The notes beneath the pieces are model-generated. The model saw only the letters and a list, made by a program, of their open reading frames with translations. It did not search any database and was not told the DNA's origin. Of a stretch of DNA of 64,000 bases, positions 31,183 to 47,251 are shown in pieces; the first letter of the stretch is position 1; every line of letters begins with the position of its first letter. The position numbers and the translations under genes were made by a program. Source of the stretch: Tsukamurella paurometabola DSM 20162 (GTDB taxonomy: Bacteria > Actinomycetota > Actinomycetes > Mycobacteriales > Mycobacteriaceae); the NCBI RefSeq assembly GCF_000092225.1, contig NC_014158.1:2666001-2730000 (forward strand). Direction: 5' to 3'.

Positions 31183-32205
31183 TCACCCCATCAGGAGAGT
31201 CCGCACGGAGAACGCCGCCTGTTTCGGGCTGCCGTCGAAACGAAAGAGGCCGAAGTTCGAATCGACCACGGACTGATCGACACTCAGGTCGCGGGTGTTG
31301 AACACCACGAAGACCGCCACCCAGCTGAGTTGTTGAGTCCGCTCAATCGCATCGACGATGAAGCTGGCCTGCATCTGTTCGGACACCGCGACCGAACTCG
31401 TCCCGGTCGGTTGCCCGTACTCGGTGATCCACATCTTCTTCGCGCCATCGCCGTTCGCCTCCATCACCTGGCGGCCGGCGATCAGGATCTCCGATCCGGT
31501 GGACGTGATCGACTTCGGAAAAGTGTAGGGGTGCACGCCTACCGCGTCGAAATAGGCCCTTCCCCCGAGCGTGTACAGATCTCGCAGGAAAGCGACGTCA
31601 CCGGTGCCGACCTGTGAGCTCGACGTCCCCCCGGAGATCACCGGCTGCTGCGCGCCAGCTGCCCGGATCCCCTGGTAGGCGGCCTTGAGAAGAGGCAGGT
31701 AGGTTGCCGCGGTCGGCGGTTGGAGATAGTGCGGGATATTGGGCTCGTTCCACACTTGGAAGGCACTCACTGTGGACGAGTACCGTTGTGCGACCGCAAA
31801 AGCGAATGCCCCGAAGGTTTGCGGATCCGCGGGCGGATTGCCGGTCCCGGCGGGATCAGCGCCTGCCGCTTGCGCCCATACCGGAGCCGGCCCGTAGAGG
31901 ACCAACAGAACCATCAATCCAGCGTTTCGAGCCCCCGCGACCGCGGCGTCCACGCGACTCCAGTCGAAGACCGACGCCGAATGTGCCTGTATCAGGTTCC
32001 ACGGGACCGGGATCCGCAGGAATCGACCGCCGACCGCGGCCGTCTTGTTGGCCTCGTCGTAGGGATCGCAGCCCGGCTGCAGGGTGCACACCGACGACAC
32101 ACCGACGGGGACCCACACGGATGCGCGCGCCGGTGCCGGCACCGCGGGACCGGTCGACAGCACGAGGACGATCGCGATGATCAGGCGGGCGATCAGCGAG
32201 TTCAT
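31183..32205 (-). CDS. Secreted GH39/PslG-like glycoside hydrolase
   Basis: 340 residues with an N-terminal signal peptide (residues 1-29, AIVLVLSTGPAVPAPARA). A TIM-barrel glycosidase of clan A: acid/base Glu154 in QVWNEPN, nucleophile Glu262 in WITEYGQP, plus AVGVHPYTF. Resembles the PslG-type hydrolases attached to exopolysaccharide loci, which trim or release the polymer. It is the last gene of the glycan locus. Signal and catalytic motifs are seen; the substrate, probably this locus's own polysaccharide, is inferred. Confidence 0.82.
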   Translation of the reverse strand: MNSLIARLIIAIVLVLSTGPAVPAPARASVWVPVGVSSVCTLQPGCDPYDEANKTAAVGGRFLRIPVPWNLIQAHSASVFDWSRVDAAVAGARNAGLMVLLVLYGPAPVWAQAAGADPAGTGNPPADPQTFGAFAFAVAQRYSSTVSAFQVWNEPNIPHYLQPPTAATYLPLLKAAYQGIRAAGAQQPVISGGTSSSQVGTGDVAFLRDLYTLGGRAYFDAVGVHPYTFPKSITSTGSEILIAGRQVMEANGDGAKKMWITEYGQPTGTSSVAVSEQMQASFIVDAIERTQQLSWVAVFVVFNTRDLSVDQSVVDSNFGLFRFDGSPKQAAFSVRTLLMG

Positions 32206-32238
32206 AACTCTCCCTACCTCGTGCCCGCGCGGGGCGCG

Positions 32239-32961
32239 CTATCTTTTGAACTGCATGATCCACGGAGCGATTCGGTCCGCGAAGACGGCGTGCGCCGCGT
32301 CAGTGGGGTGGATGCCATCGGATCCTATGAACTCTGCGCGCCGACTGTCCAGATCAGGAAACCACTTGTCGGCCACCGGATCCATGACTTCCGCCAAACA
32401 GGGGCGTGCGGCGTTCTTGAGTACAGCGGCATTGTCGGCGACGGCGACCACCCCGGCCGCCGAACTGGGCCAGGCCGGGGTCACGATCAGGATCTTGATT
32501 CCCCGTGCCGTCTTCCGCACCTCATCGCATAGCGCCTGCACGGCACGGGGCAGATCGCCCTTGACGTTGATGTCGTTCGAACCGCCGAACACCACCACGC
32601 CGGCGGTCTCCGAATCGACGACGGCGCGAGCGCTGTCGCCGAACGTGTGCCCGCCCTCCCCCTTGGCCAGGTATCCCTGACCGCCGTACGCGGACACCGC
32701 CACATCGATCGACAGGCTCGCCACCTGCACTGCCGCCCGGGTACGGGCCACCCAGTTCGCCTCACCCCTTCCGCCGTACTGTGTTCCGGCGGTGAAGCTG
32801 TCACCCACGACGGCCACCCGCGTGCCCGACCACGCGGGCGCCGTAGCGCGCAGCGAGATACTCGAGGCCGGCAGGTCGAGGTATTCAGTTCCGCAGCCGC
32901 TGGACGCGGTGACCACGATCATCGCCACGGTGACTCGGACTACCTTCGCGATACTCCACAT
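32239..32961 (-). CDS. SGNH/GDSL-type hydrolase, lipoprotein
   Basis: 240 residues. Signal peptide with lipobox-like ASSGC (about residue 22). SGNH blocks are all present: VVGDSFTAGTQ (nucleophile Ser), GGSNDIN, and SDGIHPTDAAH with the Asp-His pair. A carbohydrate esterase or deacetylase acting on the exported polymer is plausible. ATG 32961 is used because GGAG lies upstream, though spacing is long (12 bases); an earlier ATG at 32982 is possible. The gene overlaps the flippase gene by 77 bases in another frame, which is unusual. Confidence 0.8.
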   Translation of the reverse strand: MWSIAKVVRVTVAMIVVTASSGCGTEYLDLPASSISLRATAPAWSGTRVAVVGDSFTAGTQYGGRGEANWVARTRAAVQVASLSIDVAVSAYGGQGYLAKGEGGHTFGDSARAVVDSETAGVVVFGGSNDINVKGDLPRAVQALCDEVRKTARGIKILIVTPAWPSSAAGVVAVADNAAVLKNAARPCLAEVMDPVADKWFPDLDSRRAEFIGSDGIHPTDAAHAVFADRIAPWIMQFKR

Positions 32962-45701: not shown

Positions 45702-45751
45702 CAGAGTTGATCCTCGCTGTCTGGTGCATTGGTTCGAATACGTGCGGAGAG

Positions 45752-47251
45752 TCAGTACGCGCCGTGATGTTCACGGACGGCCCGGAATGTGCGCCATAGG
45801 ATCTGGAGGTCGGCGGCTAGTGACCAGTTCTCCACATAGGTGAGGTCGAGATGCACCGTCTCCTCCCAGGAGAGAGTGCTACGTCCCGAAACCTGCCAGA
45901 GTCCGGTCATCCCCGGCCGCACCAGCATTCGCTTCGTGGTGATCGCATCGTAGGCCGCCACCTCGGAGAGCAGCGGCGGGCGCGGGCCGACCAGGCTCAT
46001 GGTTCCGGCGATCACATTGAACAATTGAGGAAGCTCGTCGATGCTGTAGCGCCTCAACAGCTTTCCCACTCGGGTGACGCGCGGATCGTTCTGCATCTTG
46101 AACAGGACCCCGGCTGCTTCATTGAGATCGGCGAGATCCGAGAGCATGCGGTCGGCGCCCACCACCATGGTTCGGAACTTCCACATTCCGAATGGCCTGT
46201 CGGCGAGCCCCATGCGCTCCGATCGATAGAAGATCGGCCCCCTGTCGTCGAACTTCACTGCGAGCGCCGTGATCACGAACACCGGGGAGAGCAGCAACAA
46301 GAGGACAGAGCCGAGCGTCACGTCGAAGAGGCGTTTCATCAGAGTGGTCGCGCGCAGATATCGCGGCCGCTCGATGTGCATGAGCGGCAGTCCCGCCTCG
46401 GAGCGATACGCGACTCTCGGCCCCGCCGCGGCGAGGACGCCCGGCGCGACCATCAGGTCGATGTGCATCTCGTCCAACTTCCACGTGAGCTCGCGCATCG
46501 CGGAAACCTCCAGGGCGTCAATCGCGGTCAGCGCGACTGCGCACTCGCCGCGATCACGAATCGCGGCCAGCCCGGTTTCCAGGTTGGGAAATCTGACACC
46601 GTCCGTACCGTCGGGCCCGCACGGCGCGGCGTCATCATCGCCGGCATCCGTGAGCACCACTCCCACCACCTGATAGCCCCGCGCGGGATTTCCCGCGATC
46701 GAGTTCTGGAAGCGCGCCACCGACACCCGGGTACCGACGACGAGAAGAGAGGTCGTCACTCGACCGGATCGCCGGTCGGCGTGCACCCTGCGACGCCAGG
46801 CGGTACGGGAGATCAGCAAACCAGCCACCCCGAGACCGAAGGCCAGAGCCCAATAGCCACGAGCGAAAACGAAGTTCGTCAGCATTCCCGCCAGCGCGAG
46901 GGCCCCGACCAGCCCCAGACTCGCCGTGAGCACGCTGTTGTACTCGGCGACTCCCGAACCGATCACTTTCTCGTCGTCGGCTTGAGCCAGATGGAGTGCG
47001 ACTTTCCACAGCACGACCAGGGCGGCAGAGAATGCGAACAGGGGGATCGCGCTCGGCTCGAACCTGGCGAATGCGTCGTCACCGAATCGGACGAACTGGG
47101 CGATCAACACAGCGGCCGAGATCACCACCGTGTCGGTAGTTCGAACGCGTCGAGTATGCCGTGCGCGACGAAGAGCAGGAGACGACGGCGTGACGCCTTC
47201 CGCGCGCGTTCCCGCCACACCGTCCCCAAAGAGGCGACGAATGGTGACCAT
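45752..47251 (-). CDS. Polyprenyl glycosylphosphotransferase (priming enzyme)
   Basis: Starts glycan assembly by moving a sugar-1-phosphate to undecaprenyl phosphate. 499 residues: four or five N-terminal membrane helices, a cytoplasmic nucleotide-binding-like domain, then the WbaP/CpsE catalytic domain with RLFDVTLGSVLLLLLSPVFV, FYRSERMGL, WKFRTMVVGA and SLVGPRPPLLSEV. ATG 47251 is supported by GGAGGA five bases upstream; a longer reading to 47347 lacks this and family similarity. First gene of the glycan operon. Which sugar it uses is unclear (glucose, galactose or fucose-type are all possible). Confidence 0.92.
   Translation of the reverse strand: MVTIRRLFGDGVAGTRAEGVTPSSPALRRARHTRRVRTTDTVVISAAVLIAQFVRFGDDAFARFEPSAIPLFAFSAALVVLWKVALHLAQADDEKVIGSGVAEYNSVLTASLGLVGALALAGMLTNFVFARGYWALAFGLGVAGLLISRTAWRRRVHADRRSGRVTTSLLVVGTRVSVARFQNSIAGNPARGYQVVGVVLTDAGDDDAAPCGPDGTDGVRFPNLETGLAAIRDRGECAVALTAIDALEVSAMRELTWKLDEMHIDLMVAPGVLAAAGPRVAYRSEAGLPLMHIERPRYLRATTLMKRLFDVTLGSVLLLLLSPVFVITALAVKFDDRGPIFYRSERMGLADRPFGMWKFRTMVVGADRMLSDLADLNEAAGVLFKMQNDPRVTRVGKLLRRYSIDELPQLFNVIAGTMSLVGPRPPLLSEVAAYDAITTKRMLVRPGMTGLWQVSGRSTLSWEETVHLDLTYVENWSLAADLQILWRTFRAVREHHGAY

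What the first reader, a model, noticed from the sequence alone, without database searches (positions are those of the whole stretch)
31183..47251. Fucose-containing, probably acylated polysaccharide locus inserted between pepQ and aroB
Seen: priming transferase, gmd, fcl, three glycosyltransferases, flippase, polymerase, two Wzz-like proteins, WcaF-like acetyltransferase and secreted hydrolases, all on one strand. Known: in mycobacteria aroB-aroD-pepQ-efp-nusB are neighbours. Inference: a Wzx/Wzy-type fucosylated exopolysaccharide locus that has replaced or displaced aroD/aroQ. It could underlie aggregation or smooth/rough colony differences.
Basis: partly seen in the sequence, partly recalled or inferred. 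Interest (0 to 1): 0.72.

Follow-up and report, generated by a model that had tools for sequence, protein, structure and literature searches.

The report
Fucose exopolysaccharide locus with unnamed acyltransferase
A block of about 16 genes in the bacterium Tsukamurella paurometabola looks like the production line for a fucose-containing surface polysaccharide; it contains an unnamed family of enzymes that probably attaches fatty-acid-like groups to the sugar chain, and one of its acetyl-adding genes has been cut by a jumping element.

Summary
The locus is real. On the minus strand, 31183-47251 holds a priming transferase, gmd, fcl, three glycosyltransferases, flippase, polymerase, two Wzz-like proteins, two hexapeptide acetyltransferases and secreted hydrolases: a Wzx/Wzy-type exopolysaccharide (EPS) locus. 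It is accessory in the genus: complete in 2 of 15 other genomes, variants in 2, not found in 11. It did not displace aroD/aroQ.

(1) A 1341-bp IS3-family element with a 3-bp target duplication splits one acetyltransferase gene, which is intact in two relatives. (2) A lipase-like lipoprotein gene (29959-31176, plus strand) travels with the block. (3) The unnamed gene 41278-42486 ('PapL') belongs to a family in which 0 of 27 members match Pfam, yet its confident model has the PapA5/condensation acyltransferase fold with an HxxxD motif; 9 of 11 members from EPS loci form one clade.

Best reading: PapL acylates the lipid-linked repeat before export. It is a candidate for the enzyme behind fatty-acid-bearing, fucose-containing EPS known chemically in Rhodococcus. 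No activity or substrate was tested.

The parts
45752..47251 (-). priming glycosylphosphotransferase (first sugar onto the lipid carrier)
   Evidence: PF02397 224 bits; TIGR03025 above cut-off (given as 45752-47269); ATG at 47251 after a shared purine-rich stretch
44673..45701 (-). gmd, GDP-mannose 4,6-dehydratase
   Evidence: TIGR01472 502 bits, cut-off 415
43702..44676 (-). fcl, GDP-L-fucose synthase (start uncertain)
   Evidence: NF047922 422.7 bits, below cut-off 500 but best match; PF01370 203 bits
42479..43720 (-). GT4 glycosyltransferase, WcaI-like (candidate fucosyltransferase)
   Evidence: NF007640 WcaI family 259 bits, cut-off 276; PF13579
41278..42486 (-). 'PapL': HxxxD acyltransferase-like protein of an unnamed family
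   Evidence: no Pfam/NCBIfam match; 0 of 27 family members match Pfam at E 0.01; model pLDDT 87.9; Foldseek top PapA5 1q9j; H in 27 of 27, D in 25 of 27
40145..41278 (-). GT4 glycosyltransferase, EpsE-like
   Evidence: PF00534 83.6 bits; NF041876 82 bits, cut-off 400
39546..40148 (-). Wzz-like chain-length protein A
   Evidence: TIGR01006 E 2.3e-10, far below its cut-off; PF02706 E 0.018 only; hydrophobic segments near both ends
39449..39565 (-). N-terminal piece (39 codons) of a hexapeptide acetyltransferase gene
   Evidence: 87% identical to residues 1-39 of the 244-aa genes in L027 and L030
38108..39448 (-). IS3-family insertion sequence, 1341 bp (orfA 39052-39381, orfB 38147-39058), 27-bp imperfect terminal inverted repeats
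   Evidence: NF033516 289 bits, cut-off 160; repeats 85% complementary; six full-length copies in own genome; 3-bp target duplication in 6 of 6 of them
37496..38107 (-). C-terminal piece of the same acetyltransferase gene
   Evidence: 76% identical to residues 39-234 (L030) and 43-234 (L027) of the intact relatives
36125..37492 (-). Wzy-type polymerase
   Evidence: PF04932 43.7 bits, cut-off 31.7; 10 hydrophobic segments
35553..36167 (-). Wzz-like chain-length protein B
   Evidence: PF02706 29.4 bits, cut-off 25.5
34999..35556 (-). WcaF-like O-acetyltransferase (hexapeptide)
   Evidence: NF007797 163.8 bits, cut-off 192; PF00132
34188..35006 (-). GT2 glycosyltransferase
   Evidence: PF00535 73 bits
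32885..34186 (-). Wzx-type flippase
   Evidence: PF13440 23.2 bits, cut-off 23; 9 hydrophobic segments
32239..32982 (-). GDSL esterase, probably an exported lipoprotein (start uncertain)
   Evidence: PF13472 62 bits; Rv0518-family GDSL lipase 146 bits, cut-off 300; lipobox-like ASSGC read by eye
31183..32205 (-). glycosyl-hydrolase-like protein, probably secreted
   Evidence: PF11790 28.3 (cut-off 21), PF00150 28.1 (cut-off 23.5); N-terminal hydrophobic segment
29959..31176 (+).
   Evidence: PF03583 48.6 bits, cut-off 23; next to the block in L027 and L030 although the block sits at two different positions; beside PapL in L075, L077, L078, L091; lipobox-like AAGC and GxSxG read by eye, where no segment passed the hydrophobicity threshold

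Best explanation
This is an accessory Wzx/Wzy-dependent exopolysaccharide operon of Tsukamurella. Shown by sequence: the machine parts (priming transferase, GDP-fucose pathway, three glycosyltransferases, flippase, polymerase, chain-length proteins), largely in the same order in loci of two other genera of the family, with PapL carrying an acyltransferase fold and motif. Inferred: the priming enzyme and three transferases build a four-sugar, fucose-containing unit on a lipid carrier; WcaF-type enzymes O-acetylate it and PapL esterifies it with an acyl group from CoA (or a carrier protein) in the cytosol; Wzx flips it, Wzy and the Wzz pair polymerise it; the exported LIP, GDSL and glycosidase-like proteins trim acyl groups or chains outside. 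In the type strain one acetyltransferase gene is split by an apparently recently moved IS3 element, so its polymer probably lacks one modification, and downstream genes could be affected.
Confidence: 0.62

Rival explanations
1. PapL acylates something other than the polymer, for example a separate surface glycolipid or a sugar nucleotide, and merely sits in the EPS operon.
For: In 13 of 20 fetched relatives the gene lies away from convincing EPS genes of this type; two such loci that were scanned, L082 and L083, hold glycosyltransferases and DUF998 genes, and L082 also an alpha/beta hydrolase and GH16. PapA enzymes of the same fold act on glycolipids (recalled).
Against: Members from EPS loci mostly form one clade (9 of 11 labelled, local support 0.991), and in the window PapL is inside the operon, overlapping or abutting both glycosyltransferase neighbours.
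Confidence: 0.22
2. PapL is a non-acyltransferase member of the condensation-like fold (dehydratase or lyase type) or is catalytically dead.
Against: First Foldseek match is PapA5; many of the listed matches are BAHD, PapA or wax ester synthase acyltransferases; H in 27 of 27 and D in 25 of 27.
Confidence: 0.15
3. The locus is decaying in this strain: the IS insertion is polar and no polymer is made.
For: The IS splits one gene and lies upstream of polymerase, flippase and one glycosyltransferase; the strain belongs to a species named in 1941 (start of abstract), so long laboratory keeping is possible.
Against: The other reading frames of the block have no internal stops, and the IS transposase genes run in the operon's direction, so read-through is possible.
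Confidence: 0.25
4. The block is an old genus-wide locus lost many times rather than a gain.
For: In the PapL tree the window protein is outside the G001/G013 pair, as G000 is far from both in the species tree; the block keeps to one interval; near-colinear loci exist in other genera.
Against: Each carrier of the full block has neighbours without it in the species tree (G000 with G014, support 0.928; G013 with G006, 0.964; G001 with G002, 0.884), the block sits at two different points of the interval, and its G+C is 66.3% against 69.1% for 1-29189 plus 47844-64000. No trees of the other block genes were made.
Confidence: 0.4

Closest known systems
Colanic acid (wca) locus of Escherichia coli
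   Same: Wzx/Wzy type with gmd, fcl, EPS-type priming enzyme, WcaI-like glycosyltransferase and WcaF-like acetyltransferase
   Different: WcaI, WcaF and WcaJ equivalog cut-offs not reached; PapL and LIP are extra (wca content recalled, not from a call)
Fatty-acid-containing, fucose-bearing EPS of Rhodococcus (SM-1, ATCC 53968)
   Same: A fucose heteropolysaccharide with ester-linked acyl groups would fit this gene set (passages of PMC12786566)
   Different: Known by chemistry; no gene for the acylation seen in the passages I read; no chemistry for Tsukamurella
PapA5 / condensation-superfamily acyltransferases
   Same: Fold over the whole chain and HxxxD motif
   Different: 8-17% identity in the structure alignments listed; no Pfam family matches; lies in a polysaccharide operon; the first H of HHxxxDG (motif recalled) is D, S or E here
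Rhodococcus equi EPS region REQ40580-780
   Same: Horizontally acquired region with EPS-type genes in a related genus (passage of PMC2947987)
   Different: Gene content not compared here

Membership tests
Wzx/Wzy-dependent polysaccharide locus | polyprenyl-phosphate glycosylphosphotransferase | tested here: met
   TIGR03025 389.9 bits over cut-off 295.6
Wzx/Wzy-dependent polysaccharide locus | Wzx flippase | tested here: met
   PF13440 23.2 over 23, marginal; 9 hydrophobic segments
Wzx/Wzy-dependent polysaccharide locus | Wzy polymerase | tested here: met
   PF04932 43.7 over 31.7; the model is named for O-antigen ligase and also covers ligases
Wzx/Wzy-dependent polysaccharide locus | Wzz/PCP chain-length protein | tested here: met
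   35553-36167 over cut-off; 39546-40148 weak
GDP-L-fucose pathway | gmd plus GDP-fucose synthase side by side | tested here: met
   TIGR01472 over cut-off; NF047922 best match but below cut-off
HxxxD (CAT/condensation/PapA/BAHD) acyltransferase superfamily | two-lobed acyltransferase fold | tested here: met
HxxxD (CAT/condensation/PapA/BAHD) acyltransferase superfamily | HxxxD catalytic motif | tested here: met
   H113 in 27 of 27, D117 in 25 of 27; D missing in L054 and L074; met in the window protein
HxxxD (CAT/condensation/PapA/BAHD) acyltransferase superfamily | acyl-CoA dependent transfer | not testable with these tools
   needs an enzyme assay
A named Pfam acyltransferase family (Condensation, PapA, wax ester synthase and the like) | match to the family model | tested here: not met
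   0 of 27 members match any Pfam family at E 0.01
Colanic acid locus | WcaI, WcaF and WcaJ equivalogs over cut-off | tested here: not met
   WcaI 136 of 800, WcaF 100 of 326, WcaJ 298 of 411 bits
IS3 family | IS3 transposase, terminal inverted repeats, short target duplication | tested here: met
   NF033516 289 over 160; repeats; 3-bp duplication in 6 of 6 full copies
Fatty-acid-containing EPS | long-chain fatty acids ester-linked to a secreted polysaccharide | not testable with these tools
   needs chemistry

The most novel reading that the evidence does not exclude
PapL founds an unnamed family of polysaccharide fatty-acyltransferases, largely limited to mycolic-acid bacteria, that esterifies fatty acids onto lipid-linked EPS repeat units before export, with LIP as its extracellular esterase or transacylase partner; it would be the missing gene behind the fatty-acid-containing exopolysaccharides of Rhodococcus and relatives, using the PapA fold inside a Wzx/Wzy pathway.
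Probability: 0.45. Interest if true: 0.68.

Novelty: new variant of a known kind. Interest (0 to 1): 0.5.

Why it matters
Fatty-acid-bearing EPS of Rhodococcus, some of it with fucose, is known chemically and listed as improving hydrocarbon tolerance (PMC12786566 passages), but in the passages and listings that I saw no gene is assigned to its fatty acylation. If PapL does it, amphiphilic EPS becomes a trait that can be read from genomes and removed by one deletion, and a fold known from mycobacterial envelope lipids would be shown at work in a Wzx/Wzy pathway. The split acetyltransferase also warns that the type strain may not make the polymer typical of its relatives.

Tried and rejected
Displacement of aroD/aroQ: rejected. 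RNA elements in 28000-52000: none at gathering score. Promoter and terminator patterns in 31100-48000: no more than in shuffled sequence (2 found against 1.9 expected; 5 against 7.1). Sequence search of PapL against solved structures with a 4-row profile: one chance-like match only (1byr, E 0.0061). PapL on plasmids: no match. Upstream region alignment of three genomes: short shared stretches, nothing decided beyond the start of the priming transferase. Only the window member of the PapL family was scanned in NCBIfam. Literature searches answered; only listings were seen, except for the six papers named in the full report.

Rows dropped: of 25 family stretches printed, L061 and L063 were left out of alignment A3; the G010 PapL (contig edge, L064) gave no row. 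Of 77 non-Tsukamurella genomes with a match, 20 were fetched, mostly from the top of the list (G197, G271, G303, G323 and G181 near the top were skipped).
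Full report
WHAT THE WINDOW IS. The own genome has 4,479,724 bases in two contigs, the first of 4,379,918. These are the sizes printed for Tsukamurella paurometabola no. 33T (DSM 20162), an opportunistic pathogen; the strain's isolation entry is bedbug ovaries (passages of PMC3156402). One relative, G001, has a contig of 61,739 bases, the length of a contig of T. asaccharolytica HKU71 found by the named-genome scan, and its block genes match with the same identities (L027 and L041).

CHECKING THE OBSERVATION. Reading frames and profile searches confirm the list. 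In transcription order: priming transferase, gmd, fcl, WcaI-like GT4, PapL, GT4, Wzz-like A, acetyltransferase (split), Wzy, Wzz B, WcaF-like acetyltransferase, GT2, Wzx, GDSL protein, glycosidase-like protein. Several matches are weaker than a name suggests: fcl, WcaI-like, WcaF-like and GDSL are below their NCBIfam cut-offs, and flippase and one Wzz are marginal. pepQ lies at 23731-24858 (best NCBIfam match, below cut-off); YCII, LuxR/AAA, F420-type reductase, TetR and LIP genes lie between it and the minus-strand block.

WHERE IT SITS IN RELATIVES. aroB was found in 15 of 16 genus genomes. The regions of the 14 relatives with aroB were fetched, plus a G011 contig. With window proteins as queries: the full block is in 2 (L027 = G001, L030 = G013), a variant in L039 (G010: gmd, fcl, LIP-like, WcaF-like, GT4), and the other 11 show a TetR gene, an F420-type reductase and pepQ beyond aroB and no block gene. 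L040 (G011) is a further variant on a short contig. In G000 and G001 the block with LIP lies between aroB and TetR; in G013 it lies beyond TetR and the reductase, with pepQ beyond it. So LIP keeps with the block, and the aroB-pepQ interval looks like an insertion hotspot. gmd is in 5 of 16 genomes and wzy in 4 of 16, all of them carriers of the block or a variant. A tree of 15 genomes from seven proteins (two only for G010; G011 not included) puts each carrier of the full block beside genomes without it: G000 with G014 (support 0.928), G013 with G006 (0.964), G001 with G002 (0.884). G+C of the block without the IS is 66.3% against 69.1% for 1-29189 plus 47844-64000. Transfer and repeated loss are both open.

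AROD/AROQ. Two PF01220 genes lie elsewhere in the own genome. In five block-free genomes (L028, L029, L034, L035, L036) the aroB and TetR matches end 10-11 bases apart; in others the gap is wider or, in L038, filled by other genes. Nothing suggests that the block displaced such a gene.

THE INSERTION SEQUENCE. 38108-39448 is an IS3-family element with 27-bp imperfect terminal repeats. The own genome holds 10 matches; six are full length, five of them with the same top score and one slightly lower, and all six have a 3-bp direct duplication at their ends. The element separates a 39-codon N-terminal piece from a C-terminal piece of one gene; searched apart, they match residues 1-39 (87%) and 39-234 (76%) of intact 244-residue genes in G001 and G013 (the C-terminal match to G001 starts at 43). 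Similar elements are on 40 plasmid records, best 83% identity, mostly Streptomyces (25 of 40). The near-identical copies suggest recent movement (inference).

PAPL. No Pfam or NCBIfam match. A protein search found it in 5 of 16 genus genomes, G010 weakly. A profile of four Tsukamurella sequences found relatives in 82 of 401 genomes of the family, 12 of 31 genera. In a phylum draw 8 of 396 genomes matched at E 1e-15, 7 of them in this family. That this family is the mycolic-acid bacteria is recalled, as the genera are unnamed. An alignment of 27 gave a model with pLDDT 87.9 and pTM 0.89. The best Foldseek match is PapA5; by Z the best is AzeD (26.7), with PapA5 at 20.9 and a wax ester synthase at 19.9. 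H113 is kept in 27 of 27 and D117 in 25 of 27. None of the 27 matches Pfam at E 0.01. So fold and motif are those of the HxxxD acyltransferase superfamily, while the sequence family is unnamed in Pfam.

CONTEXT OF PAPL ELSEWHERE. Of 20 fetched loci outside the genus (20 of 77 matching genomes, mostly the best), 11 have at least one match to a block protein, but only 7 (L075-L080, L091) have ones I call convincing; 0 of 11 block-free aroB regions have any. L075 and L077 are nearly colinear with the window, with PapL placed next to LIP. LIP lies beside PapL in L075, L077, L078 and L091, not in L076, L079 or L080. In the PapL tree, 9 of 11 members labelled as EPS-locus (window, L027, L030, L040 and those of the seven loci) form one clade, local support 0.991; L053 and L069 fall outside. 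In L082 and L083, which lack convincing block genes, neighbours include glycosyltransferases and DUF998 proteins, and in L082 an alpha/beta hydrolase and GH16.

MECHANISM. Shown: parts, order, fold, motif, interruption. Inferred: a four-sugar unit (priming enzyme plus three transferases) with fucose; O-acetylation by WcaF-like enzymes; acylation by PapL before Wzx; polymerisation by Wzy with the Wzz pair; extracellular trimming by LIP, GDSL and the glycosidase-like protein. Export is read from N-terminal hydrophobic segments (GDSL, glycosidase-like) and lipobox-like strings (GDSL, LIP); LIP had no segment over the threshold there. That WcaI adds fucose and WcaF acetylates it in colanic acid is recalled, not from a call. 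A Rhodococcus EPS of Gal, Glc, Fuc and GlcA 1:1:1:1, and others with fucose plus stearic and palmitic acid, are listed in a review (PMC12786566, passages).

LITERATURE. Opened: PMC6070502 (abstract, outline, passages; arabinomannan, no mention of fucose), PMC3156402, PMC12298843, PMC12786566, PMC2947987 and PMC7502451 (passages only). PMC12298843 counts acyl-CoA:1-acyl-glycerol-3-phosphate acyltransferase, found in one genome, and homoserine O-acetyltransferases among EPS-related genes; PMC12786566 has no occurrence of the word acyltransferase. The listings showed no paper on this locus or on a PapL-like EPS enzyme; I saw only titles and starts of abstracts there, and most subscription papers are not held.

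VERDICT. The polysaccharide locus itself is a new member of a well-known kind; the unnamed acyltransferase family at its core, with LIP, makes it a new variant worth testing.

Noticed in passing
own genome C1:307276-307346 and 308638-309912 (L025, L024): One copy of the IS is split into two slightly overlapping parts about 1.3 kb apart, as if another element had landed in it.
   Followed up: no
own genome C1:4257205-4257615 and C1:1552487-1552849 (L001, L002): Two type II dehydroquinase (PF01220) genes in one genome; one could serve a catabolic pathway.
   Followed up: no
L031 12430-16952 (G014): The closest relative in the tree lacks the EPS block but has about four other reading frames in the same aroB-pepQ interval, which fits an insertion hotspot.
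   Followed up: no
L071 1441-3960, L072 1453-3816: Two PapL relatives lie at the C-terminal end of reading frames of 839 and 787 codons: possible fusions or overlong frames.
   Followed up: no
G010 C47:4140-5150 and C8:52605-53621: G010 has two gmd genes, one in a variant locus beside TetR and aroB.
   Followed up: partly
window 25890-28652: Large LuxR-type AAA regulator between pepQ and the block; among the fetched aroB regions matched only in L026, L033 and, at a different place, L038.
   Followed up: no
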